DNA from: an uncultured Pseudoxanthomonas sp.
GTDB lineage: Bacteria > Pseudomonadota > Gammaproteobacteria > Xanthomonadales > Xanthomonadaceae
Assembly: GCA_946479745.1 (NCBI GenBank)
Contig: CAMLGZ010000036.1
Location: 1 to 16,672, forward strand
Direction: 5' to 3'
Length of the DNA: 16,672 nucleotides
How positions within the stretch are numbered: the stretch's first letter is position 1; each line of letters starts with the position of its first letter. This document shows, piece after piece, positions 1-15,213 of this stretch. The notes beneath the pieces were generated by a model that was given only the letters and a program-made list of their open reading frames with translations, did not search any database and was not told the DNA's origin. The position numbers and the translations under genes were made by a program.

Positions 1-2
1 GT

Positions 3-320
3 TCTAAAAAGTACACGACTCAAGAGTTGACCGATGCAGGTCGCTGCACCGCGCGCGAGGTTGCCCCTGGCCTTTGGTACGCGAAGGGAGTTACGGATAT
101 TCCGGCTATGAGAGCCAGCGCCATGCTGCCGCTTCGATATGAAGCGTTGCTCGTTGTTTTTGACGATCCTAGAGAGCCAGCGGTGCGATCTTTCGGTGAA
201 CAACTATTGCCATGCAGCTTTCGTGTCAACGACGTTGATAGCACGTTAAGCATTGCGCATCGCAGTCTTTGCGGCGAGGCACTCAATCTAACCGGCTTCA
301 AACAAAAGCATGGCATCTGA
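3..320 (+). CDS. Hypothetical integron cassette protein (5' end outside window)
   Basis: The reading frame is open from the left edge to the TGA at 318-320, so the true start probably lies outside the window. A TTG at 27 is the only early in-window start and has no convincing ribosome binding site. The visible 105 residues have no signal peptide or membrane segment and match no family I recognise. A central stretch (LPLRYEALLVVFDDPREP) looks like a strand followed by a charged loop, suggesting a soluble globular protein. The stop codon sits inside the left core of the attC site that follows, which is the usual compact arrangement of an integron cassette and supports this frame over the shadows in other frames. 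Function unknown. Confidence 0.6.
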   Translation, partial: SKKYTTQELTDAGRCTAREVAPGLWYAKGVTDIPAMRASAMLPLRYEALLVVFDDPREPAVRSFGEQLLPCSFRVNDVDSTLSIAHRSLCGEALNLTGFKQKHGI

Positions 321-380
321 CAATTCATTCAAACCGACGCCGCTTTGCGGTAGGCTTTCGACCTGACTCAGGCATTAGAC
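315..380 (+). other. attC site 1 (integron recombination site)
   Basis: The left core resembles RYYYAAC (ATCTGAC) and is followed by AATTCATTCAAACCGACGCC. The right side has GGTAGGCTTTCGACC, TGACTCAGGC and then ATTAGAC. The two halves are imperfectly complementary around the CGCTTTGCG centre, as expected of a folded attC. The first base of the right core is A instead of the canonical G (ATTAGAC versus GTTAGAC). It shares the AATTCATTCAA and TCAGGC blocks with the sites near 1107, 3142 and 3471. Confidence 0.85.
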
Positions 381-419
381 TGCTTCCGCACAATCATTCA
401 ATCTGCAGAGAAATACCCA

Positions 420-1103
420 ATGCGATGCCTCCTAGCGATTCTTGGCGTTGTTGTTCTCACCCTGTTGGCGCCCCAGAGTTTCGCGCAACAGGCTCCCGGC
501 CAGTTTGCCCGCATGGTTGTCCTGAAACCAAAGCCTGGACAAGCATCCGAATTCGCTGACGGGTACGAGCGTCATCTCGCTTGGCACAAGAACAACAAAG
601 ATCCATGGAACTGGTACGGCTGGACATTCATCCTGGGAGAGCGGGTTGGTCAATTCATGGACGGAACTTTTGGTCACGCAGTCACCAACTTCGATCAGGC
701 GGTCAAGCCAAGCGAAGATTCGGCGGACAACAATGTAAATGTGGCGCCTTATGCCGACTTTGTCAGTCACGGCATATATGAGCGATTGGAAGCCGCCAGC
801 ACAGGAACGTTGCTGCCTGACGCCTCCCCGTTTCTGGCGCTCACCACATACACCGTTACTCCCGGCCTGGAGTCGTCGTTTGAGTCCGCTATTACCAACT
901 TGGCAAAACGTTCCGCGGACCAGCGCATGTCGTGGTACAAGCTGCGTATTGGCGGACAACTATCGCAATACGTGCTGATGCGCCCGGTTCAAACATTCTC
1001 GGGAGGAGGCTCGCTCGCTGAGATTGAGCTACCTGCCGGCCTGGTACAACGCGCCCAAAGCGAGCTTCTCAGATATCAGCCAACACTCGGTTATGCGCCC
1101 TAA
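420..1103 (+). CDS. Exported hypothetical protein in integron cassette
   Basis: The 227-residue product begins with a clear Sec signal peptide (hydrophobic 4-17, likely cleavage after SFA near residue 22), so it is probably periplasmic. The mature part contains two similar-looking halves: one starts QFARMVVLKPKPGQASEFADGY, abbreviated here as a strand plus helix near residues 28-50, and the second starts FLALTTYTVTPGLESSFES near residues 138-156. Two such halves are typical of a ferredoxin-like dimeric alpha/beta-barrel fold (ABM/NIPSNAP-like), but this is inference from pattern only. No catalytic motif is visible. The ATG lies 40 bp after attC 1 and has only a weak purine-rich upstream sequence (GCAGAG). 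The stop at 1101-1103 precedes attC 2 directly. Function unknown; confident only that it is an expressed-looking cassette gene. Confidence 0.8.
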   Translation: MRCLLAILGVVVLTLLAPQSFAQQAPGQFARMVVLKPKPGQASEFADGYERHLAWHKNNKDPWNWYGWTFILGERVGQFMDGTFGHAVTNFDQAVKPSEDSADNNVNVAPYADFVSHGIYERLEAASTGTLLPDASPFLALTTYTVTPGLESSFESAITNLAKRSADQRMSWYKLRIGGQLSQYVLMRPVQTFSGGGSLAEIELPAGLVQRAQSELLRYQPTLGYAP

Positions 1104-1106
1104 ACG

Positions 1107-1166
1107 GCCTGACAATTGATTCAGGCCGAAGCCGCTTCGCGGCCCGGCATAGTTCAGGCGTTAGTG
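1107..1166 (+). other. attC site 2
   Basis: A 60-bp site running from GCCTGACAATTGATTCAGGC through the complementary centre GCCGCTTCGCGGC to AGTTCAGGC and the right core GTTAGTG. The core GTT at 1160 is intact although the last bases deviate from GTTRRRY. It begins 3 bp after the stop codon of the preceding gene. Same sequence family as attC 1, 6 and 7. Confidence 0.88.
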
Positions 1167-1221
1167 TTGGGTGCGTCTGACGGGTTACCGATTCCACTAT
1201 CCTCGCTGGAGGAGAAGACTG

Positions 1222-1617
1222 ATGAAAGTGCTGGATTCCGGACCTTTTTTTCACGGCACGAAAGCCGACTTGCGGGTTGGCGACTTGCTTACGGCCGGCT
1301 TCGGATCGAACTACAGAGATAGTGTGGTCATGAACCATATTTATTTCACTGCGTTGCCAAAAGGTGCTGGGCTTGCCGCGGAAATCGCAAAAGGGGATGG
1401 CCATCCTCGGGTCTATATCGTTGAGCCAACAGGAGAATTCGAAAACGATCCGAACGTCACGGACAAGAAATTTCCCGGCAATCCAACGCGCTCATATAGA
1501 AGCCAGTTGCCTTTGAAAATCATCGGTGAACTCAAGAGCTGGGAGCTCTACGACCGGGCATTCGTCCGGCAACTCAGGAGCAGTGTGGAAACAGGCACGG
1601 GTGAAATAATCAATTAG
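1222..1617 (+). CDS. Arr-like NAD+-rifamycin ADP-ribosyltransferase, cassette-borne
   Basis: The 131-residue protein belongs to the Arr family, which transfers ADP-ribose from NAD+ to the C23 hydroxyl of rifamycins. It contains the FFHGTKADL block near the N terminus (His11), VYIVEPTG (65-71), NDPN (Asp76) and KFPGNPTRSYRS (83-93). The His11-Tyr41-Asp76 spacing of 30 and 35 residues equals that of the His19-Tyr49-Asp84 triad of the Mycobacterium smegmatis enzyme as I recall it. The WGAELA helix that is conserved in most Arr proteins is replaced by GLAAEIA, and the C-terminal region is divergent, so substrate range may differ. The start is set by a strong GGAGGAG at 1208-1214, 7 bp from the ATG; an upstream in-frame extension runs back to 1171 without such support. 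It lies between attC 2 and attC 3. Rifamycin inactivation is inferred from homology only. Confidence 0.85.
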   Translation: MKVLDSGPFFHGTKADLRVGDLLTAGFGSNYRDSVVMNHIYFTALPKGAGLAAEIAKGDGHPRVYIVEPTGEFENDPNVTDKKFPGNPTRSYRSQLPLKIIGELKSWELYDRAFVRQLRSSVETGTGEIIN

Positions 1618-1618
1618 A

Positions 1619-1718
1619 GGGTCACATACGTGTCGTTTGGTTGCTGCGTCGGGAAAGCCCGTAAGATCGTAGCTTCGCCGCCGTCGCAAAGTGGTGCGGC
1701 CTGGTTTGGGCGTTAGAC
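1619..1718 (+). other. attC site 3, atypical body
   Basis: The right core GTTAGAC at 1712-1718 fits GTTRRRY perfectly and is preceded by GGCCTGGTTTGGGC. The rest does not share the AATTCATTCAAG block of the other sites, and I cannot place a good complementary left core, so the left boundary (just after the arr-like stop) is approximate. It is read as an attC because it lies in the right position between two cassette genes and ends in a perfect core, 16 bp before the next start codon. Confidence 0.6.
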
Positions 1719-1733
1719 ATATAAGGAGGCATC

Positions 1734-2171
1734 ATGACGGTCAAGCGTATGGACAACGTCGGCATCGTAGTAGAAGACCTCGATGCCGCCATCGAGTTCT
1801 TCACCGAACTTGGCCTGGAACTCGAGGGGCGCGCCCCTATCGAAGGAGACTGGGCAGGTGGGGTCACTGGATTGCGCGACATGCGCGTCGAGATTGCCAT
1901 GCTGCGTACGCCGGACGGTCACAGCCGGCTCGAGATATCCCGCTTCCTCGCGCCGCTCGTGGTCGCCGATCACCGCAACGCTCCGGTGAACGCTTTCGGG
2001 TACCTGCGCGTCATGTTCACTGTGGAAGACATCGACGACACGCTCGCCAGGCTCCGAAAACGCGGCGCGCAACTGGTCGGCGAAGTGGTCCAGTACGAAG
2101 ACACGTATCGGCTGTGCTACATCCGGGGCCCGGAAGGAATTCTTATCGGACTTGCCCAAGAACTCGGGTAG
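1734..2171 (+). CDS. VOC-fold (glyoxalase/bleomycin resistance-like) protein, cassette-borne
   Basis: The 145-residue product has the paired beta-alpha-beta-beta-beta layout of the vicinal oxygen chelate superfamily: an N-terminal unit (MDNVGIVVEDLDAAIEFF, residues 6-23, to SRLEISRF at 64-71) and a second unit (LRVMFTVEDID at 91-101 to PEGILIGLAQEL at 133-144). The superfamily normally binds a metal through His/Glu residues at the start and end of these units. Here the first position is Asn8 in place of His, the third is Arg92 in place of His and the fourth is Gly139 in place of Glu; only Glu67 remains. It is thus probably not a metal-dependent enzyme and may bind or sequester a small molecule, but this is inference. 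A strong AAGGAGG at 1723-1729 lies 4 bp before the ATG. Cassette of the integron array between attC 3 and attC 4. Confidence 0.88.
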   Translation: MTVKRMDNVGIVVEDLDAAIEFFTELGLELEGRAPIEGDWAGGVTGLRDMRVEIAMLRTPDGHSRLEISRFLAPLVVADHRNAPVNAFGYLRVMFTVEDIDDTLARLRKRGAQLVGEVVQYEDTYRLCYIRGPEGILIGLAQELG

Positions 2172-2268
2172 CAGGCTTCCAGGTGCGCACATGTGGCGCA
2201 GAACCGACAGGGGTTTGTACACGCGATGGCTGGTTTCCTTCGCGCTCGGATTAATTCCAGCGTTAGGC
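2172..2268 (+). other. attC site 4, atypical body
   Basis: The right core GTTAGGC at 2262-2268 matches GTTRRRY perfectly. The ~95 bp from the VOC stop to this core contain no gene and do not share the common AATTCATTCAAG block. The left core cannot be identified with confidence, so the left boundary is approximate. As for attC 3, position between two cassette genes is part of the evidence. Confidence 0.58.
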
Positions 2269-2288
2269 CTTGAAAAAAGGAGTGCAAC

Positions 2289-2582
2289 GTGAAGAATCTG
2301 CTGGTACTCGTCATCGTGTGCGCAATCGCCTGGTTCGGCTATGGCAAATACAAATCCATGAGCGCTCCAGCGGCCGTCCCCGATCCGGCATCCGCCGCCT
2401 CCTATTCTCCTGCACCAAATGCTTCTACCTCATCCCCAGCGCAGTTCAGCTGCGATGGGCGAACGCATTGCTCGCAGATGCACTCTTGCGCGGAGGCTAC
2501 CTACTTCATTCGGAACTGTCCAAACACCAAGATGGACGGTGACGAAGACGGTGTGCCCTGCGAGCAGCAGTGGTGCAACTGA
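2289..2582 (+). CDS. Exported Excalibur-domain protein, cassette-borne
   Basis: The 97-residue product starts with an uncleaved-looking signal anchor (hydrophobic residues 3-16), followed by a Ser/Ala/Pro-rich linker (25-51) and a cysteine-rich C-terminal domain. That domain reads CSQMHSCAEATYFI ... CPNTKMDGDEDGVPCE and is the Excalibur domain: DxDxDG (Asp83, Asp85, Asp87) forms a calcium-binding loop resembling an EF-hand, and Cys61, 67, 77, 91 and 96 are available for disulfides. It would therefore sit in the periplasm, tethered to the inner membrane. Start is GTG at 2289, set by AAGGAG at 2277-2282, 6 bp upstream. The role of Excalibur proteins is poorly known. The gene lies between attC 4 and attC 5. 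Confidence 0.85.
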   Translation: MKNLLVLVIVCAIAWFGYGKYKSMSAPAAVPDPASAASYSPAPNASTSSPAQFSCDGRTHCSQMHSCAEATYFIRNCPNTKMDGDEDGVPCEQQWCN

Positions 2583-2590
2583 CTGGCGCA

Positions 2591-2703
2591 AGACCCGGTA
2601 TTCATTCAAGCCGAGCGCGCAGCAGGCCGCCGCTTAAGCTTAGCTCTTCGGCTATATTCGCTCCCAGTCGCCCTGCTGCAGGTCGGCATGATTCAGGCGC
2701 CGC
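2591..2703 (+). other. attC site 5 (long, degenerate cores)
   Basis: The left arm TATTCATTCAAGCCGAGCGC plus CAGCAGG is complementary to the right arm CCTGCTG, TCGGC, ATGATTCAGGCG, giving a roughly 110-bp folded site. The central 2630-2670 stretch is AT-richer. The expected left core CCTAACAAT is replaced by ACCCGGTAT and the right core GTTRRRY by GCCGCCC, so both recombination cores look damaged. It is otherwise the same family as attC 1, 2, 6 and 7. Confidence 0.7.
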
Positions 2704-2706
2704 CCC

Positions 2707-3147
2707 ATGCGTCTCTGGTCGTTACACCCAAAGTATCTCGATCCACAGGGTCTGGTCGCCTTGTGGCGCGAGGCTCTGCTGGCCAAGGCTGTCCTTCGTG
2801 GCGAGACTCGCGGCTATACCCATCATCCTCAGCTGGAGCGGTTCAAGGCCCACGCTCATTCGCGCCTGGCCATCAACTCGTATCTGGCGTCGGTCCATGA
2901 CGAGGCCACCAGGCGTGGCTATTCCTTCGACCGGTCCAAGGTCGGGCCCGTTCGGACCATCCAAGCCATCCCGGTCAGTTCAGGTCAACTCGCGTTTGAG
3001 TGGAATCATTTGCAGCATAAGCTGGCAGAACGCAGCCCGGCCGTGCTTGCCCAATGGAGCAATGTGGCTGCGCCGGCGTGCCATCCGCTGTTTCGCCGAC
3101 GACCTGGATCGGTGGCGTCATGGGAGCGGGTGTCTGATGGCGCCTAA
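2707..3147 (+). CDS. Pyrimidine dimer DNA glycosylase / endonuclease V-like, cassette-borne
   Basis: The 146-residue product matches the bacterial family annotated as pyrimidine dimer DNA glycosylase (Pyr_excise, the T4 endonuclease V group). The recognisable N-terminal block is MRLWSLHPKYLD with QGLVALWREALLA and AVLRGETRGYTHHPQLERF, and the C-terminal block is LAFEWNHLQHKL and HPLFRRRPG. Proteins of this group are proposed to excise UV-induced pyrimidine dimers and nick at the abasic site. The start ATG lies immediately after attC 5 with no ribosome binding site; a purine run is absent, so translation may depend on read-in. The stop TAA (3145-3147) is inside the left core of attC 6. Family assignment is good; biochemical activity of this subfamily is inference. 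Confidence 0.82.
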   Translation: MRLWSLHPKYLDPQGLVALWREALLAKAVLRGETRGYTHHPQLERFKAHAHSRLAINSYLASVHDEATRRGYSFDRSKVGPVRTIQAIPVSSGQLAFEWNHLQHKLAERSPAVLAQWSNVAAPACHPLFRRRPGSVASWERVSDGA

Positions 3148-3200
3148 CAATTCATTCAAGCCAACCTACTTCGCGGGTCGGCTTGGTTCAGGGATTAAGC
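3142..3200 (+). other. attC site 6
   Basis: A 59-bp site with the left core GCCTAAC followed by AATTCATTCAAGCC, a hairpin centre around ACTTCGCGGGT, GGCTTGGTTCAGG and the right core ATTAAGC. The left core is canonical; the right core begins with A instead of G. It contains the stop codon of the preceding glycosylase gene. Confidence 0.9.
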
Positions 3201-3203
3201 GCT

Positions 3204-3476
3204 ATGTGGCAACGCGATCAACTTAGACAAACGATCATCAGCACCGGCTGCGTCGGGGCAGTGTTCGGGTTTTTGCCGGTCCTTGGGCTAATAGTGTTCC
3301 GCTCGGAATATGGCCGTGTCGCAACCCACTCCCGGCCACTCATAACCCAGGCATTTGATCTCGGCTTTCTGTTCATCGGCAGCGTTCTGTTCTGTATCGT
3401 TTTCTTTGGTCTGCTACCAATGGCTTTTCAGTACGGTTTTATATGGGTGGTACGTCGCTGGACCGGGCGATCCTGA
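3204..3476 (+). CDS. Small two-helix membrane protein, cassette-borne
   Basis: The 90-residue product has two predicted transmembrane helices (roughly residues 11-31 and 48-78, the second long and aromatic-rich) separated by a short polar loop (SEYGRVATHSRP). The C terminus is basic (VVRRWTGRS). I do not recognise a family. The ATG at 3204 is 4 bp after the attC 6 core and follows a weak AGGGA at 3190-3194; an upstream TTG at 3183 lies inside attC and is unlikely. The TGA is within the left core of attC 7, supporting this frame as a real cassette gene. Small membrane proteins are frequent in cassette arrays, but nothing here indicates function. Confidence 0.7.
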   Translation: MWQRDQLRQTIISTGCVGAVFGFLPVLGLIVFRSEYGRVATHSRPLITQAFDLGFLFIGSVLFCIVFFGLLPMAFQYGFIWVVRRWTGRS

Positions 3477-3529
3477 CAATTCATTAAAGCCGAACCCGCC
3501 TCGCGGGTCGGCTGTGTCAGGCGCTGGAT
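3471..3529 (+). other. attC site 7 (terminal, degenerate right core)
   Basis: Left core TCCTGAC followed by AATTCATTAAAGCCGAACCC, a perfect complementary centre CCCGCCTCGCGGG, GTCGGCTGTGTCAGGC and right core GCTGGAT in place of GTTRRRY. The loss of the GTT triplet means recombination here is probably poor. No further attC follows, so this is read as the end of the array. Confidence 0.85.
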
Positions 3530-3559
3530 AGTCCCGGTCACAGCTGTACTCACTTTAGA

Positions 3560-3578
3560 TTTTTGGGCGGCCCAAAAA
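3560..3578. repeat. Inverted repeat downstream of the cassette array
   Basis: An 8-bp perfect stem, TTTTTGGG and CCCAAAAA, around a CGG loop. Because both arms carry A/T tracts it has the shape of a bidirectional intrinsic terminator. On the plus strand it is not followed by further T residues beyond the stem; on the minus strand the T run (TTTTT) is part of the stem. It sits 30 bp after the last attC. Confidence 0.55.
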
Positions 3579-3579
3579 A

Positions 3580-3609
3580 CAAAAAAAAGGGAGGCGCTGC
3601 GCGCCTCCC
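3580..3609 (-). terminator. Rho-independent terminator facing left
   Basis: A perfect 9-bp GC-rich stem, GGGAGGCGC (3589-3597) with GCGCCTCCC (3601-3609), around a TGC loop. Read on the minus strand it is followed by eight T residues, then G and six more T-rich bases, which is a strong intrinsic terminator. Read on the plus strand no T tract follows. It is thus oriented to stop minus-strand transcription arriving from the mocR side, or belonged to a lost minus-strand gene. Confidence 0.75.
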
Positions 3610-3708
3610 CACAACAAATTTATACAACACAGGGGGGCTTGCGGCAAGGCCCTGCGCCTAATGCAGTATCGCCGGCCTGCCGATCTGGCAGAAAACCGGA
3701 GCGCCGCG

Positions 3709-4110
3709 ATGACCGATTGCCAAACGTACTACCACGGCACAAAAATCGACCTGAAGGCGGGCGACCTGATCGAACCGGGCTATGCCTCCAACTACGGCAA
3801 AAGAAAGCAAGCGGCTTTCGTCTACCTGACCGCCACACTGGATGCGGCCGTCTGGGGAGCGGAGCTGGCCGTTGGCACGGGGCGTGGCAGGATCTACATC
3901 GTGGAACCGACAGGATCCATTGAAGATGATCCGAACCTGACGAACAAGAGATTTCCCGGAAACCCTACGAAGTCCTACCGTTCCCGGGATCCATTCCGCG
4001 TCGTAGGCGAGGTTGCGGATTGGGAAGGTCACTCACCCGACCGGCTCAAAGAAATGCGCGATCACCTCGAGAACCTCAAGCAACGAGGTGTCGAGGCAAT
4101 TGAAGAATGA
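3709..4110 (+). CDS. arr: Rifampin ADP-ribosyltransferase (Arr)
   Basis: The 133-residue product is a canonical Arr: YYHGTKIDLKAGDLI (7-21), FVYLTATLDAAVWGAELA (37-54), IYIVEPTGSIEDDPNLTNKR (62-81) and FPGNPTKSYRS (82-92). His9, Tyr39 and Asp74 keep the 30/35-residue spacing of the catalytic triad known for this family, and the WGAELA helix is intact. The enzyme ADP-ribosylates rifamycins using NAD+ in the cytoplasm; rifampin resistance is expected but not shown by the sequence. The start at 3709 is preferred over 3661 because GGAG at 3698-3701 lies 7 bp upstream; the longer form would be 149 residues. It lies outside the attC array, about 180 bp beyond the last attC, and has no attC of its own. 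It is a paralogue of the cassette gene at 1222. Confidence 0.93.
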   Translation: MTDCQTYYHGTKIDLKAGDLIEPGYASNYGKRKQAAFVYLTATLDAAVWGAELAVGTGRGRIYIVEPTGSIEDDPNLTNKRFPGNPTKSYRSRDPFRVVGEVADWEGHSPDRLKEMRDHLENLKQRGVEAIEE

Positions 4111-4183
4111 GGTCGGCAACGCACCCAAGGTCGGAAGTTTGTAGTTGCGTATTGATGCGGATTCCGGAAGGCTGATGAAGTGT

Positions 4184-4203
4184 CCGCTTCCGACCCGAAG
4201 CGG
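4184..4203. repeat. Inverted repeat between arr and mocR
   Basis: CCGCTTC (4184-4190) and GAAGCGG (4197-4203) form a 7-bp stem around CGACCC. It sits between the convergent 3' ends of arr and the mocR-type gene. No T tract follows in either direction, so a terminator role is only possible. The rest of the 4111-4242 stretch holds no gene I can support. Confidence 0.4.
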
Positions 4204-4242
4204 CCATGCGAGCGCCGTGCTGGTTCGCAGGTTTTCGAACGT

Positions 4243-5745
4243 TCAAGATGCGCGCTTACGGGCGGTGATATCCGCTAGGACCTTGGACAGCGTCCGCACG
4301 CCCCGGATGATGTCCGCTTCCGGAACGCCGCCGAACCCCAGGACCAGGCCAGGGTCGCCTGTGTTCGCAACGTAGCAGGTAGAGAGTGCGATCGCGCTGA
4401 TACCTCGAGTGAGCGCAAATCGCACGACGTCGACGTCGTCGATACCCGTCGGCAACCGCGCCGTCAGGTGCATGCCTGCGTCCGCGTTGACGATGGTCAA
4501 CACGTCGCCGAGATGTTTTTCGATTTCAGACACGAGCGTATCCCGACGGCTTTGGTAAATCGCACGCATACGGCGCAGGTGCCTCGAGAAATGCCCTTCG
4601 CAAAGAAAGTCCATCAACACCAGTTGATCGAGTGTCTGCGGAAACAGATCCATGGACAGGCGCTGCGCGATGAACTTTTCCACGAGCGGCGGCGGCACGA
4701 CCAAGTAACCCATGCGCAACGCAGGGAAAAGGACTTTGCTGAAGGTTCCCGTATAGATGACCTGGGCCGCGCCATTCATTCCCTGCAGCGCGCCGAGCGG
4801 TCGGCTTGAAAAACGGTAGTCGCTGTCGTAATCGTCTTCAATGATCCATGCTTGGTGACGCCGCGCCCAGCCAAGCAATTCCAAGCGTCGCGACACGTTC
4901 ATCGAAACACCCAGTGGATATTGATGCGATGGCGTCACGTAGACCGCACCCGCTGGACTTTTCGTGGGGCGCATCGATTGCACCATGAGTCCCTCACTGT
5001 CCACCGATACCGGTTGCAACGTCGCACCGGTCGCGGTCAGAGCCGACCTCGCTCCGGGGTAGCCAGGATCTTCAAAGTAGAGCGTATCCCCCGGTTTGAG
5101 CAGCACGCGCGCGCACAAATGCAGTGCCATCTGCGATCCGGAAACAATCAGGATTTGGTTGGCATCGCACGTCACTGCCCTCGAGGTGCGCAGATAATCG
5201 GCCACGGCGTGACGAAGCGGCAGGTGGCCCGCCGGATCGCCATAGGCCATCAGCTGGATCGGCATGCCTCGGGCATGACGCGTTACGAGTCGGGCCCATA
5301 TCTTTTGCGGAAAGCGATCGAGGGCTGGCAAGCTGACACGAAAGGCGCCGAGGTCCTTTTTTTGATCTTGCGCATCCCGCGAGCCAGAGGCGGGTGGGAC
5401 TGCAATACTGCATCTACGCGAGCTGCGCCGATACGCCGATCCCTCACCCAGTGCCGTTGTATCCCGCATGTCGTGTATCGACGACGCCACAAAGGTCCCC
5501 GAGCCCGCTCGTCCTTCAAGATATCCCTCATGCAGCAGTTGCTCGAACGCGGTCAGCACCGGCAGGCGTGAAATGCCCAACTCGCGGGCGAGCGCTCGCG
5601 TCGAGGGAATCCGCTGCCCCGGGCGCAGTCTTCCTTCGAGAATTGCTGTGCGGTATCCGTCGTAGATCTGTCGGTAAAGCGGACGCCCACCCGCCTCGAC
5701 GGTGACGAAGGGAATGACCGCCTCGCGTGCAGAATGCTTGCTCAA
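4243..5745 (-). CDS. MocR/PdxR-type transcriptional regulator with aminotransferase domain
   Basis: The 500-residue protein has a GntR-type winged helix at 20-86 (PLYRQIYDGYRTAILEG, then IPSTRALARELGISR as recognition region, then GYLEGRAGSGTFV) and a fold-type I aminotransferase-like domain at about 140-490. In the latter, EDDYDSDYRF (303-312) carries the PLP pyridine-contacting Asp and TGTFSKVLFPALRMGY (332-347) carries the PLP lysine, Lys337. MocR regulators sense pyridoxal phosphate or its adducts and control neighbouring genes. Start is a TTG at 5745; an in-frame stop lies 24 bp upstream and no ATG or GTG precedes the conserved domain, so this start is forced although the ribosome binding site is poor. 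The gene is divergent from the exported protein at 5833, the usual layout for a MocR regulator and its target. Confidence 0.92.
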   Translation of the reverse strand: MSKHSAREAVIPFVTVEAGGRPLYRQIYDGYRTAILEGRLRPGQRIPSTRALARELGISRLPVLTAFEQLLHEGYLEGRAGSGTFVASSIHDMRDTTALGEGSAYRRSSRRCSIAVPPASGSRDAQDQKKDLGAFRVSLPALDRFPQKIWARLVTRHARGMPIQLMAYGDPAGHLPLRHAVADYLRTSRAVTCDANQILIVSGSQMALHLCARVLLKPGDTLYFEDPGYPGARSALTATGATLQPVSVDSEGLMVQSMRPTKSPAGAVYVTPSHQYPLGVSMNVSRRLELLGWARRHQAWIIEDDYDSDYRFSSRPLGALQGMNGAAQVIYTGTFSKVLFPALRMGYLVVPPPLVEKFIAQRLSMDLFPQTLDQLVLMDFLCEGHFSRHLRRMRAIYQSRRDTLVSEIEKHLGDVLTIVNADAGMHLTARLPTGIDDVDVVRFALTRGISAIALSTCYVANTGDPGLVLGFGGVPEADIIRGVRTLSKVLADITARKRAS

Positions 5746-5789
5746 GTGGCTATCCGAAAAATGTGGCTAGTGGTCATTGTGTCATGACC
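5746..5789. promoter_or_regulatory. Candidate MocR operator region
   Basis: Between the divergent genes lie a direct repeat GTGGCTA at 5746-5752 and 5763-5769 (17 bp start to start) and an inverted repeat GGTCAT (5772-5777) with ATGACC (5784-5789). Direct repeats close to the start are typical binding sites for MocR proteins. No clear -35/-10 pair is visible. Assignment is by position and symmetry only. Confidence 0.4.
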
Positions 5790-5832
5790 GCATGGCCGGC
5801 ATCTTGGGCGCTACCGCCAGAGACGGCTTTAG

Positions 5833-6417
5833 ATGATGCGACGCAGCCCCGGTTCCCACTCCGCCTACCTTGCGCTAGCCATCTACGCATGCATGGGAGT
5901 CGCTCTGCCCGTATCGGCCGTTTCCAAGCCGAGTGGTCAGAGCATAGCGACAGATGGCCAGCACGATTTCGACTGGGAATTCGGAATCTGGAAGACACAT
6001 CTGAAACGGCGTCTGCGTCCGCTGTCGGGCTCACACGATTGGGTCGAATATCGGGGCACCACGACCGTCAGAAAGGTCTGGAACGGACGCGCCAACTTGG
6101 TGGAACTGGACGTGACCGGGCCGGCGGGCCACATCGAGGCCCTCGCGCTGCGTCTCTACAACCCAGAGACGCGCCAATGGAGCCTCAATTTCTCCAATAG
6201 TGCCGGCGGCACCATGGCGATCCCTACGGTCGGCGAATTCAAGGCGGGACGTGGCGAGTTCTATGCCCATGAGACCCTCGACGGCCGCAGCATTCTCGTT
6301 CGCTTCATCATCTCGGAGTTCAGCCAGAAGTCTGCCCACTTCGAGCAAGCCTTTTCCGAAGACGGAGGCAAGACATGGGAAACGAATTGGATCGCAGTGG
6401 ATACCAGAGTGGAGTGA
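5833..6417 (+). CDS. Exported hypothetical protein (DUF1579-like)
   Basis: The 194-residue product has a signal peptide (hydrophobic residues 11-26, probable cleavage near VSA at 27-29). The mature part begins HDFDWEFGIWKTHLKRR (44-60), followed by alternating strands (GTTTVRKVWNG, NLVELDVTGP, GHIEALALRLYNPETRQWSLNF) and ends FSEDGGKTWETNWIAVDTRVE. This is the layout of a small beta-rich lipocalin-like family often annotated DUF1579 or hypothetical; I recognise the family but not its function. Start codons at 5833 and 5836 are both possible, and no good ribosome binding site is seen. The 3' end overlaps the GNAT gene by 43 bp, implying co-translation. It is divergent from mocR, so it may be a regulated target. 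Confidence 0.82.
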   Translation: MMRRSPGSHSAYLALAIYACMGVALPVSAVSKPSGQSIATDGQHDFDWEFGIWKTHLKRRLRPLSGSHDWVEYRGTTTVRKVWNGRANLVELDVTGPAGHIEALALRLYNPETRQWSLNFSNSAGGTMAIPTVGEFKAGRGEFYAHETLDGRSILVRFIISEFSQKSAHFEQAFSEDGGKTWETNWIAVDTRVE

Positions 6418-6887
6418 GTCCTTCGCAGCCGCCACTGGTCGTCCGTGCGTTGCAGGAAAATGACTTCCGCGGGTGGAAGCCCTTGTGGGACGGCTACAAC
6501 GCGTTTTACGGGCGCCAAGCGCAGACCGTCTTGCCTTCGGAGATCACGCAGATCGCCTGGAAAAGATTTCTCGATCCGCGCGAACCTGTTTTTGCGCTTG
6601 TCGCCGAGGCCGCTGGCGAACTGGTGGGTCTAAGCCACTACCTTTTCCATCGCAGCACGATCCGGCTTGAACCTATCTGCTACTTACGCGATCTGTTTAC
6701 GATCGAATCGAGACGCGGCTTCGGAATCGGAAGGGCTCTGATCGATGGCGTGTGTCGGGCGGCGAAAGAGGCCGGCGCGTACGAGGTTTATTGGCAAACC
6801 CACCAGTCCAACATCGCGGCACGGCGCTTGTACGATTCTGTGGCAGAGAACGAAGGGTTCATCGTCTACAGTCATGACCTGAAGTGA
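6375..6887 (+). CDS. GNAT family N-acetyltransferase
   Basis: The 170-residue protein contains an acetyl-CoA binding motif A RRGFGIGRALIDGV (113-126), preceded by the beta-4 strand YLRDLFTIES, and motif B region YWQTHQSNIAARRLYDSV (139-155). It therefore transfers an acetyl group from acetyl-CoA to an unidentified amine, in the cytoplasm. The start at 6375 overlaps the previous gene by 43 bp and is backed by GGAGG at 6364-6368 with 6 bp spacing, so the pair is probably translationally coupled. A later GTG at 6414 is a weaker alternative that would remove 13 residues of non-conserved N terminus. Substrate unknown. Confidence 0.9.
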   Translation: MGNELDRSGYQSGVSPSQPPLVVRALQENDFRGWKPLWDGYNAFYGRQAQTVLPSEITQIAWKRFLDPREPVFALVAEAAGELVGLSHYLFHRSTIRLEPICYLRDLFTIESRRGFGIGRALIDGVCRAAKEAGAYEVYWQTHQSNIAARRLYDSVAENEGFIVYSHDLK

Positions 6888-7070
6888 TGTGGCGATACGT
6901 CGATTGGCGAAACACTCGATCTGCTGAATAGAGTCGACAAATTCGGAAACTTTCTTCTAATCGTCCAACTTTCTTGATTGCGCTTTTTCGCCTACAAACA
7001 AAAATACCATCGTAATTAACCGCGCCGACTCATAAATACAAACGTAATTTCACCATGGAGATCGCGAACA
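6888..7070 (+). promoter_or_regulatory. AT-rich leader with repeats upstream of the metallo-beta-lactamase-fold gene
   Basis: This 183-bp gap is markedly richer in A/T than its surroundings. It carries a 9-bp direct repeat AACTTTCTT at 6948-6956 and 6967-6975 (19 bp apart) and a second repeat CGTAATT at 7011-7017 and 7043-7049 (32 bp apart). These are plausible promoter or regulator sites, but no clean sigma-70 pair can be assigned. GGAG at 7057-7060 is the ribosome binding site for the ATG at 7071. Confidence 0.45.
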
Positions 7071-7952
7071 ATGCTTATCAACAATTCGCTCGGAAGGCTC
7101 CTGATGGTCGCCGCCATTGCTTTGAATCCTGGCGCATTCGGCAATGCCGCGAAGGCTGAGCCTGCCAAGCCGGCGTACCAGACGACCAAGGTTGCACCCG
7201 GCCTCTATAGCTTCGGCGGTGGGTTGGCTTTCAACGCCTTCATGGTTACCGACGATGGTGTGGTCGTCATGGACAGCTTCGACAAGGATTTCGCCAAAGC
7301 CTCGCTTGAGGCCATCCGCAAAGTTACCGACAAACCAATCAGGTATCTCATCTATTCGCACAATCACTACGATCACATCAGCGGTGGTGAAGTGTTCAAA
7401 GCAGAAGGCGCCACGATTCTCAGCCATGAGGCAGCCGCCAGCTGGCTGAAGAGCCATCCTAGCCCGGACGTAACCATGCCCGACAAAACCTGGTCCGGAT
7501 CCAAGTCGGAGCTGAAGCTCGGGAGCAGTCAGATCAACCTTCTGTATTTTGGAGCGAACCACGGCGAAGGCATGACCGTATTCCAGTTTCCGCGCGAGAA
7601 GGCGATCTACACCGTCGATCTTGTCGTGCCGAATCGGGTGGCCTTCGCCTACATGCCGGATTTCTCTCCGAAGGAATGGGAGCGCACGCTTGCTGAGATG
7701 GAAAAACTCGATTTCGACCAGGTGATGTTTGCTCACAACGCGCCTGTAGGGCCAAGGGCGAGCGTAGCGGACCAGCTAAAATTTCTCCAGGACCTGAGGG
7801 GTGCGATTTTCGCTGAATTCAAGAAGGGCACGCCCTTCATGCGGATTCCGAACGCAGTGAAGCTTCCTCAATATGAGGCGTGGGATGGATACGAGGAATG
7901 GTTGCCTATGAACACCTGGCGCGTTCTACTCGAGATTGCGATGGGCGTCTGA
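7071..7952 (+). CDS. Exported metallo-beta-lactamase-fold hydrolase
   Basis: The 293-residue protein has an N-terminal signal (hydrophobic 8-20, probable cleavage after AKA near 29), then an MBL fold. The zinc motif is SHNHYDHISGG: His97, His99, Asp101, His102. Further ligands are His164 (GANHGEGM), Asp183 (TVDLVVPN) and His222 (AHNAPVG). These are the expected two-zinc set. The enzyme is probably a periplasmic hydrolase, but the substrate is not evident; the family includes lactonases, beta-lactamases and other hydrolases, and I would not call it a carbapenemase. GGAG at 7057-7060 lies 10 bp before the ATG. The gene stands alone on its strand in an AT-rich leader context. Confidence 0.92.
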   Translation: MLINNSLGRLLMVAAIALNPGAFGNAAKAEPAKPAYQTTKVAPGLYSFGGGLAFNAFMVTDDGVVVMDSFDKDFAKASLEAIRKVTDKPIRYLIYSHNHYDHISGGEVFKAEGATILSHEAAASWLKSHPSPDVTMPDKTWSGSKSELKLGSSQINLLYFGANHGEGMTVFQFPREKAIYTVDLVVPNRVAFAYMPDFSPKEWERTLAEMEKLDFDQVMFAHNAPVGPRASVADQLKFLQDLRGAIFAEFKKGTPFMRIPNAVKLPQYEAWDGYEEWLPMNTWRVLLEIAMGV

Positions 7953-7967
7953 CAACTGGCAACGGCA

Positions 7968-7983
7968 ACGTTTTACCAAACGT
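7968..7983 (+). terminator. Weak hairpin downstream of the MBL-fold gene
   Basis: ACGTTT (7968-7973) and AAACGT (7978-7983) form a 6-bp stem around TACC. Only a short T run follows (GGATTT), so termination is uncertain. It lies 15 bp after the stop codon. Confidence 0.3.
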
Positions 7984-8057
7984 GGATTTGACCCGTTCGA
8001 GTGCTGGTGAAGCCTTGGCCGTTGTCACGGTCAATCGATAACACGCTCGACACGGCT

Positions 8058-8090
8058 GGCGTACCCGGAGATGCGGCGCTGGGGTACGCC
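8058..8090. repeat. Long-loop hairpin between the MBL-fold gene and the lytTR gene
   Basis: GGCGTACCC (8058-8066) and GGGTACGCC (8082-8090) form a perfect 9-bp stem with a 15-base loop. It lies about 30 bp past the end of the minus-strand response regulator gene and between two convergent 3' ends. A bidirectional transcript-end hairpin is possible, although no T tract is present. Confidence 0.45.
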
Positions 8091-8121
8091 TGCGACAACG
8101 TTCGTCTCCGCTCCCATGTAG

Positions 8122-14116: not shown

Positions 14117-14989
14117 CTACTGGTCGCGCACTTCGCCGCCGGGCAGGAACTGCCAGGTGCGGGTGACGTGCAGGATGTCGATGTTCTCTTCGGTCTTGGG
14201 CAGCGGGGGGAACGGCACCGACAGTTGCACGATGCGCAGCGCGGTGGAGTCGAGCAGCGGAATGCCGCTGGACTGGATGATGCGGGTGTTCTCCACCGAA
14301 CCGTCGCGGCGCACGGCGACGCTGATCACCAACTGGCCCTTCAGGCGTTTGCGCCGGGCTTCGTCGGGATAATTGAGATTGCCTACGCGCTCGGCACGGT
14401 CGACCCACGCGCGCAGGTAGTTGGCGTATGCGTATTCCCTGGTGCTGGCGGAAACGAATTTGCGCTTGGGGCGTTTGGCGTAAAGATCGGAACGCAGGTG
14501 GATCTCGGCGGCCAGGCGCGCCATTTCCGCATCGCGGTCGATCTTCAGATCGCCGCGCGGCAGTTCCGGCCGATCGGGTTCGGGTCTGGTCTGCGCGGGG
14601 GGCACGGCGGTGTCGCCGTTTCTCGAGGTGACCACGCGCGTTTCCGGCGGTGGGGCGACGTCGGGCGACTGCGCGCGCAAAGGTTGCGGGGCCACTCCGG
14701 TCTGCGTCTGCGGCACCCAGCCGGCCTGGCTGTCGCGCGGGCGTTGGGCTTTGTCGTGGTCGCCGCCGCCCTGCTGATTGGCCGCGGCCAGGAAATCGGC
14801 CTGCTTCGGTGTGAGCGGGGTCTGGGTCTGGCTCAGGATTACATCCAGCGTAGGCACCACCGGCGCCGCATCGTCCAGGGCGAAGCCCAGACCCAGCACC
14901 AGCATGCCGTGCACAATCAGCGACAACGCGAGGGTGGCGGTGAGGCGTTCGTTGGAACCTATTTTGGGTGGAGCGGCGACTGCGGACAT
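14117..14989 (-). CDS. TonB-domain energy transducer-like protein
   Basis: The 290-residue protein has a single N-terminal anchor (about 19-37, preceded by basic residues at 9-15), a Pro/Gln/Arg-rich periplasmic linker (about 90-145) and a C-terminal TonB domain (about 200-283). That domain is visible as LNYPDEARRKRLKGQLVISV, DGSVENTRIIQSSGIPLLDSTALRIVQLSVPFPPLP. In TonB proteins this contacts the plug of outer-membrane receptors and transmits ExbB/ExbD energy. No exbB/exbD is in the window, so this may be an orphan TonB-like protein; partner unknown. It follows gshB on the same strand, separated by a repeat, and could be co-transcribed. ATG at 14989. Confidence 0.9.
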   Translation of the reverse strand: MSAVAAPPKIGSNERLTATLALSLIVHGMLVLGLGFALDDAAPVVPTLDVILSQTQTPLTPKQADFLAAANQQGGGDHDKAQRPRDSQAGWVPQTQTGVAPQPLRAQSPDVAPPPETRVVTSRNGDTAVPPAQTRPEPDRPELPRGDLKIDRDAEMARLAAEIHLRSDLYAKRPKRKFVSASTREYAYANYLRAWVDRAERVGNLNYPDEARRKRLKGQLVISVAVRRDGSVENTRIIQSSGIPLLDSTALRIVQLSVPFPPLPKTEENIDILHVTRTWQFLPGGEVRDQ

Positions 14990-15008
14990 TTCAGTGAAGC
15001 ATCAAAAG

Positions 15009-15189
15009 CCCCTCTCCCAGCGGGAGAGGGGTTGGGGTGAGGGTACGGCGAAGTGAGAATGCCGCAGATCCTTGCTCGCGGGCCACAATCAGGTTGGCGC
15101 TTGCTGTTTTGCCATCGAGCACGGCTAGTGCGTCACTCCGCCGTACCCTCATCCGCTCTTTCGGAGCACCTTCTCCCGAGGGGAGAAGG
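15009..15189. repeat. Paired inverted repeat element (REP/MITE-like)
   Basis: The left part has a 10-bp hairpin CCCCTCTCCC/GGGAGAGGGG (15009-15031) followed by GTGAGGGTACGGCGAAGTG (15037-15055). The right part has CACTCCGCCGTACCCTCAT (15134-15152) and a 9-bp hairpin CCTTCTCCC/GGGAGAAGG (15169-15189). The two 19-bp segments are inverted copies matching at 17 positions. The whole 181 bp fills the gap between the tonB-like gene and gshB and contains no gene. Similar hairpin-plus-ggtgagggta elements are common intergenic repeats in Xanthomonadaceae as I recall. Confidence 0.85.
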
Positions 15190-15213
15190 GAGAAGCCGGT
15201 TCGCGCTTCGCAA

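What the first reader, a model, noticed from the sequence alone, without database searches (positions are those of the whole stretch)
1..3529. Tail of a chromosomal integron with seven cassettes
Seven attC-like sites alternate with single plus-strand ORFs. Stop codons fall inside or next to the left cores, and five sites share a common body. This is accessory DNA captured by site-specific recombination, and most ORFs are of unknown function. The integrase should lie to the left.
Basis: partly seen in the sequence, partly recalled or inferred. Interest (0 to 1): 0.72.

Follow-up and report, generated by a model that had tools for sequence, protein, structure and literature searches.

The report
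Fossil cassette array beside rifamycin-resistance gene
The stretch is the worn-out end of a bacterial gene-capture array whose shuffling sites have decayed while its genes look intact, and it abuts a rifamycin-resistance gene that carries, in a Gram-negative bacterium, a control element known from actinobacteria.

Summary
The window is Pseudoxanthomonas. Positions 1-3533 are the distal end of a cassette array. Models built from relatives' attC sites find five of the seven claimed sites; site 4 keeps a right half, site 3 is borderline. None of the five keeps both core triplets, against 27 of 30 counted in the P. yeongjuensis integron, which has a full integrase (p=1.7e-4). At the same locus the relative CF125 has five attC sites and no integrase match. 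I read it as an integrase-less relic (CALIN); the window's left flank is unseen. Cassette 3 encodes an Arr rifamycin ADP-ribosyltransferase, 51% identical to mobile Arr-2. Past the last site a second arr carries an exact 19-bp rifamycin-associated element (RAE), described in Actinobacteria. 61 of 62 arr genes checked in the family have it within 3 mismatches. A stronger-looking antisense promoter opposes the sense one in 58 of 65 loci, and an antisense terminator follows in 59 of 62, suggesting that RNA polymerase itself senses rifamycin. That mechanism is inferred.

The parts
3..320 (+). ORF of cassette 1, cut by the window start; no Pfam or NCBIfam family
313..386 (+). attC site 1, decayed (left core TCTGACA, right core ATTAGAC)
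   Evidence: searches (32.5 bits; 15.2 bits), sequence
420..1103 (+). cassette 2 ORF, 227 aa, signal-peptide-like start by eye, no family; a relative (47% identity) stands next to a VOC gene that is followed by attC sites in genome G018
1105..1170 (+). attC site 2 (right core GTTAGTG, left core GAC)
   Evidence: (66.9 bits)
1222..1617 (+). cassette 3 ORF: Arr, rifamycin ADP-ribosyltransferase, 131 aa, without RAE
   Evidence: (NF033144 149.5 bits, cut-off 130)
1610..1718 (+). claimed attC site 3; not found by either model, right end borderline; DNA matches of the VOC gene to several other genomes begin just after it (1722-1724)
1734..2171 (+). VOC/glyoxalase-superfamily gene; 90% identical to the VOC gene at the end of a P. 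yeongjuensis array
2246..2268 (+). right half (L'-R') of an attC site; no left half recognised
2289..2582 (+). cassette ORF with Excalibur calcium-binding domain
2587..2711 (+). attC site 5, long type, both core triplets lost
   Evidence: (55.3 bits)
2707..3147 (+). cassette ORF, pyrimidine dimer DNA glycosylase family (Pyr_excise); also present at the same locus in CF125 and P. sacheonensis
3140..3204 (+). attC site 6 (left core intact, right core ATTAAGC)
   Evidence: (53.3 bits)
3204..3476 (+). last recognised cassette ORF, 90 aa from the ATG, membrane-like by eye, no family
3469..3533 (+). attC site 7, last recognised site (left core GAC, right core GCTGGAT)
   Evidence: (57.8 bits)
3578..3610 (-). 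terminator-like hairpin followed by eight U, reading away from arr (-20.3 kcal/mol)
   Evidence: such a hairpin in 59 of 62 family loci
3619..3647 (-). antisense promoter-like pair: -35 TTGCCG inside the RAE, 17 bp, -10 TATAAA; not listed by the stock promoter scan
3634..3652 (+). rifamycin-associated element (RAE), exact match to the 19 bp as recalled
   Evidence: the same letters stand upstream of M. smegmatis arr in the oligo table of PMC7882622
3639..3669 (+). sense promoter-like pair: -35 TTGCGG inside the RAE, 19 bp, -10 CAGTAT; not listed by the stock promoter scan
3709..4110 (+). second arr gene (133 aa) just past the array
   Evidence: NF033144 227.4 bits

Best explanation
Positions 1-3533 are the distal end of a cassette array of Xanthomonadales attC type that, in a small group of Pseudoxanthomonas species, sits at a locus next to a LytTR response-regulator gene without a local integrase (a CALIN). 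Cassettes were once inserted by an integron integrase, which still exists elsewhere in several relatives. At this place the recombination sites have since lost bases that an integrase needs, so the cassettes are frozen in place, while their reading frames stay open. One frozen cassette is an arr without RAE. The unit after the last recognised attC is a second arr that brings its own promoter region with an RAE; in two other genomes of the family such a gene is followed at once by an attC-like site, so it is probably a former cassette too. Shown: five attC sites, decayed cores, the locus and one cassette gene shared with two relatives, two arr genes, the RAE letters. Inferred: absence of an integrase to the window's left, immobility, resistance activity, rifamycin control.
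For: Five attC sites by models built without the window. Core triplets: both intact in 0 of 5 window sites and 1 of 5 CF125 sites at the locus, against 27 of 30 counted in P. yeongjuensis. CF125 has five attC sites at this locus and no integrase match there. The Pyr_excise gene is present at this locus in the window, in CF125 (87% aa) and in P. sacheonensis (68.5%), with dN 0.066 and dS 0.601 against CF125. Of 80 tonB loci scanned only CF125 showed several attC sites (single hits in L064 and L003); the P. sacheonensis array lies beyond the 10-kb flank of that scan and was found in a separate fetch. An attC-like site begins 11 bp after the stop of an RAE-bearing arr in G463 (40.1 bits) and G445 (27.3 bits). 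Integrase-less clusters away from the integrase site are reported for about 50% of Xanthomonas genomes (PMC12444791, passages).
Against: The window's left flank is unseen, so a local integrase is not excluded. 0 of 5 is a small sample, sites are not independent events, and sites at the end of any large array may be older. An integrase elsewhere in the genome could still act here. By DNA comparison the arrays at this locus share only one cassette gene between window and CF125, so cassettes moved after their split. In P. sacheonensis two of the four sites at the locus keep both triplets. The attC-like sites behind arr in G463 and G445 have poor left halves (by eye).
Confidence: 0.78

Rival explanations
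1. An active sedentary chromosomal integron whose integrase lies left of position 1; only its oldest cassettes are seen here and have drifted.
For: Integrases over the family cut-off exist in 10 of 16 Pseudoxanthomonas genomes searched, P. sacheonensis among them; a large array with mostly intact sites occurs in P. yeongjuensis.
Against: In CF125 the same locus has no integrase match; in P. sacheonensis the integrase lies on another contig; window sites are decayed from the first visible site onwards.
Confidence: 0.17
2. Not an array but chance repeats between unrelated genes.
For: Sites 3 and 4 fail both models.
Against: Five hits at 20-67 bits, all on one strand in the first 3.6 kb; the best hit elsewhere, echoes aside, is 11.7 bits.
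Confidence: 0.01
3. For the second arr: the RAE is bound by an unknown rifamycin-responsive factor, and the TATA-like box next to it belongs to an upstream sense promoter, so no antisense promoter is needed.
For: PMC12802891 and PMC10719064 (passages) consider a bound factor for actinobacterial genes; in M. smegmatis helD a further sense promoter lies upstream of the RAE; the box could be read in either direction; neither promoter pair passes the stock scan.
Against: The box fits an antisense -10 at 17 bp from the palindrome's other -35 as the best spacing in 64 of 65 loci; a terminator-like hairpin on the antisense strand follows in 59 of 62; a sense reading would put its -35 inside that hairpin (by eye). 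A factor shared by both phyla would be needed.
Confidence: 0.5

Closest known systems
CALIN (cluster of attC sites lacking integrase), as in Xanthomonas genomes (PMC12444791, passages)
   Same: several attC sites, no integrase nearby in the relative, same place in related species
   Different: different locus, core boxes mostly decayed, carries arr; whether those of Xanthomonas are decayed was not looked up
Xanthomonadales-like attC sites (PMC8352920, passages; Pseudoxanthomonas is named there)
   Same: attC sites of the same order; I recognised the body from memory and by homology within the genus
   Different: degenerate R boxes; the part of the resistance-cassette table that I saw lists no arr
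arr-2 and arr-3 cassettes of mobile integrons
   Same: Arr enzyme in a cassette array
   Different: 50-51% amino-acid identity over residues 6-123; no full attC recognised on the right of the window cassette
RAE of Actinobacteria (PMC10719064, PMC12802891, PMC10194278, PMC8655204, passages)
   Same: 19-bp palindrome upstream of rifamycin-defence genes; in M. smegmatis arr the letters lie at -74 to -56 and transcription starts 31 bp before the start codon (PMC7882622, passages)
   Different: here in a gammaproteobacterial family, with an antisense terminator-like hairpin
Dual-promoter rifampicin alarm of Bacillus subtilis helD (PMC12802891, passages)
   Same: stronger antisense promoter opposing the sense promoter of a rifamycin-defence gene
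   Different: there the promoters converge, with -10 boxes 45-55 bp apart in the authors' search motif; here they would be back to back and share the palindrome as -35

Membership tests
Integron cassette array | several attC sites alternating with ORFs in one orientation | tested here: met
   five sites; ORFs
Complete integron | integron integrase gene and attI | tested here: inconclusive
   own genome not held; no integrase match at the locus in CF125; the window's proteins beyond 1-5745 were not searched for it
CALIN | at least two attC sites without integrase nearby | tested here: inconclusive
   met for CF125 at the same locus within 18 kb on its left; left flank of the window unseen
Functional attC sites | conserved AAC and GTT core triplets | tested here: not met
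   0 of 5 have both
Functional attC sites | bottom-strand hairpin | tested here: inconclusive
   of seven stretches folded, sites 2, 6 and 7 fold better than shuffles (z -2.48, -3.28, -4.84), the other four do not
Arr (rifamycin ADP-ribosyltransferase) | family model above curated cut-off | tested here: met
   NF033144: 149.5 and 227.4 bits, cut-off 130
Arr (rifamycin ADP-ribosyltransferase) | rifamycin modification | not testable with these tools
   needs an enzyme assay
RAE | 19-bp palindrome upstream of a rifamycin-resistance gene | tested here: met
   0 mismatches at 3634-3652; motif recalled and checked
RAE | confers rifamycin induction | not testable with these tools
   needs an expression assay

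The most novel reading that the evidence does not exclude
The RAE is not an operator for an unknown transcription factor but the shared -35 of two back-to-back promoters. A stronger antisense promoter, whose short RNA is ended at once by its own terminator, competes with the weak sense promoter of arr. Rifamycin-bound RNA polymerase would upset that contest and switch arr on, so that RNA polymerase itself is the sensor, which would explain why the same 19 bp serve in Actinobacteria and in Xanthomonadaceae. In this family the self-regulated arr has also been carried as an integron cassette.
Probability: 0.33. Interest if true: 0.78.

Novelty: new variant of a known kind. Interest (0 to 1): 0.5.

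Why it matters
The array itself is an ordinary kind of relic, though it shows genes outliving their recombination sites. The neighbour matters more. The RAE's mechanism is described as unresolved in the two papers whose passages I saw (PMC10719064, PMC12802891). Finding the element in a second phylum, with a conserved opposing promoter-like pair and terminator-like hairpin, makes a factor-free mechanism directly testable with purified RNA polymerase. An attC directly behind such a gene would mean that a rifamycin-resistance cassette can carry its own switch.

Tried and rejected
Rfam scan: no family. tRNA scan: none. Plasmid search with the site-3 stretch 1612-1725: no match. The cross-phylum claim is thin on the actinobacterial side: 0 of 13 plasmid-borne arr genes that I fetched (of more than 1,700 plasmid records with an arr match) have the RAE, including Streptomyces xanthii and Arthrobacter. 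For three cyanobacterial ones the annotated gene begins further upstream, so the stretch looked at is partly coding. The claim therefore rests on one published stretch (M. smegmatis) and on reviews. RAE pattern in viral contigs: none. Outside the family sample only 3 of 13 arr genes have the RAE; I do not know the family of those three. Of 20 genomes in the phylum sample of 398 with a site at up to 1 mismatch only 4 have it at arr, and the backwards control pattern also gives occasional hits, so single matches away from arr mean little. In G603 the best RAE match lies 154 bp before arr without the usual boxes, in G548 it has 6 mismatches, and G610, G460 and G548 lack the hairpin. The antisense pair scores no higher than the sense pair in 7 of 65 loci. 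The stock promoter scan lists neither RAE promoter. The random-segment control for the RAE drew from loci that themselves hold RAE copies, so I do not lean on it. The idea that the VOC gene was freshly made into a cassette was dropped: a VOC gene also stands beside attC sites in P. yeongjuensis and G018. The triplet count used 56 of the 97 matches; echoes on the other strand, half-matches of long sites and weak hits were left out. All 20 long sites of alignment A3, most of them from P. yeongjuensis and several of them among those left out, keep both triplets. The enrichment of attC near arr (4 of 35 loci of about 3 kb against 4 of 514 background windows, p=8e-4; without the two weakest 3 against 3, p=0.004) treats related genomes as independent. 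On checking, the right-half scan was found partly out of register and was replaced (34 of 39 rows used, one still off); site 3 moved from within chance to borderline.
Full report
WHERE IT IS. The TonB-like protein at 14117-14989 (PF03544) is 98% identical to those of Pseudoxanthomonas sacheonensis DSM 19373 and Pseudoxanthomonas sp. CF125, so the window is from that genus. No genome is held for it.

THE OBSERVATION. I aligned 19 short attC sites from relatives and built a covariance model without any window site. It finds five plus-strand sites in the window at 20.2 to 66.9 bits; the next hit that is not an echo of a site is 11.7 bits. A second model from 20 long sites scores the site at 2587-2711 at 55.3 bits and recovers the other four. 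The claimed sites near 1610-1718 and 2170-2268 are not found. A half-site scan gives the second of these a right half that none of 100 simulated sequences reaches; the right end of the first is reached by 5 of 100. So the count is five of seven plus one half site.

THE CASSETTES. Pfam finds an Arr, a VOC/glyoxalase protein, an Excalibur domain and a pyrimidine-dimer glycosylase; three ORFs have no Pfam or NCBIfam family at E up to 0.001. The cassette Arr is 50.8% identical to Arr-2 of mobile integrons over residues 6-123 and 84% identical to an Arr on a Burkholderia cenocepacia replicon. The VOC gene is 90% identical to a VOC gene at the end of a P. yeongjuensis array. In genome G018 a relative of the 227-aa ORF lies beside a VOC gene that is followed by attC sites at 43.8 and 37.6 bits.

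A RELIC. In P. yeongjuensis, which has a complete integrase, 27 of the 30 attC sites counted keep both core triplets. In the window none of five does, and in CF125 at the same locus one of five does (Fisher p=1.7e-4 and 3e-3; rows are sites, not independent events). Both CF125 arrays elsewhere that lie beside N-terminal integrase fragments are mixed: 6 of 8 and 1 of 3. At the locus CF125 has a helicase gene (PF13307) and a TsaB-like gene (PF00814; names recalled), then attC sites and ORFs, then the LytTR response regulator. No integrase match falls in the 20 kb fetched there. P. sacheonensis has four attC sites and the same glycosylase gene at this place, two of the sites with both triplets, and its integrase on another contig. 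In 63 of the 71 tonB loci (of 80) where I found the TsaB-like gene it lies within 3 kb of tonB; in CF125 9 kb lie between. Among the 80 loci only CF125 shows several attC sites; L064 and L003 have one hit each, and P. sacheonensis was seen in a separate fetch. The glycosylase gene has dN 0.066 and dS 0.601 against CF125. So the gene was kept while the sites decayed. Integrase-less clusters in conserved places are reported for Xanthomonas (PMC12444791, passages), so this is a further member of a known kind.

THE GENE NEXT DOOR. Some 36 to 51 bases past the last attC a block begins that is conserved up to the stop of a second arr (3709-4110). Its relatives in CF125, P. sacheonensis and P. yeongjuensis lie elsewhere in their genomes. 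The recall is supported by a published stretch upstream of M. smegmatis arr at -74 to -56 (PMC7882622, oligo table), against -75 to -57 here. All 12 zero-mismatch copies of the core pattern found in 38 genomes of the genus lie at arr. In the family sample 62 of 395 genomes have arr. I looked upstream of one arr in each of the 62: 61 have the element with at most 3 mismatches, and the last has 6. Elsewhere it is rarer: 3 of 13 further arr genes of the phylum sample and 0 of 13 plasmid records fetched. The cassette arr of the window lacks it.

ITS ARCHITECTURE. Reading the palindrome as two back-to-back -35 boxes, the best -10 lies 19 bp away on the sense strand in 58 of 65 loci and 17 bp away on the antisense strand in 64 of 65. 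The antisense pair scores higher in 58 of 65. Beyond the antisense -10 stands a hairpin followed by U residues on that strand in 59 of 62 family loci, against 15 of 5000 random segments. In the window it folds at -20.3 kcal/mol. The M. smegmatis stretch, joined by eye, also has a 19-bp sense spacer, and its mapped start is 31 bp before the start codon (PMC7882622). In B. subtilis a stronger antisense promoter opposing the sense promoter makes helD respond to rifampicin (PMC12802891, passages); the arrangement there is convergent. The same paper says that the RAE's mechanism remains to be elucidated. My proposal is that the RAE works by promoter competition for RNA polymerase. Related loci are not independent, the antisense -10 could serve another promoter, the stock scan lists neither pair, and no expression data were available.

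ARR AS A CASSETTE. In G463 and G445 an attC-like site begins 11 bp after the stop of the RAE-bearing arr (40.1 and 27.3 bits), and both genomes have an integrase over the family cut-off elsewhere. In P. yeongjuensis two attC-like sites (50.2 and 22.6 bits) lie just upstream of it. In the window it follows the last attC, with no attC found after it. I infer that this gene has travelled as a cassette with its own promoter.

PRINT. Searches for the element's name and letters showed me no held paper that reports it outside Actinobacteria; one search listed only 20 of 125 papers, and I saw passages of a few. The library lacks most subscription journals, and I did not see the original RAE paper, so this is weak evidence of novelty.

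Noticed in passing
window 3634-3652 and 3578-3669: Exact RAE upstream of the second arr, with opposing promoter-like pairs and an antisense terminator-like hairpin; seen at nearly every arr checked in the family.
   Followed up: yes
   Followed up: partly
L111 7039-7124, L118 82-167: attC sites of two species both broken off at the same place by similar sequence starting CAACTGTCTTG, perhaps an insertion sequence that targets attC.
   Followed up: no
G001 contig C5 near 454000 and 78000 (L108, L109): CF125 has two further attC arrays each beside an N-terminal integrase fragment.
   Followed up: partly
L115 5517-5919: The arr gene of CF125 is split into two frames; intact copies exist in relatives.
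   Followed up: no
window 4110-8100: A GntR/aminotransferase regulator, an ORF without Pfam family, a GNAT and a metallo-beta-lactamase-superfamily protein lie between the second arr and the regulator gene; in CF125 the glycosylase cassette and the regulator region are about 80 bp apart.
   Followed up: no
window 15007-15198: Short repeats shared with a Xanthomonas bonasiae locus (L019), where they occur as several copies next to tonB.
   Followed up: no
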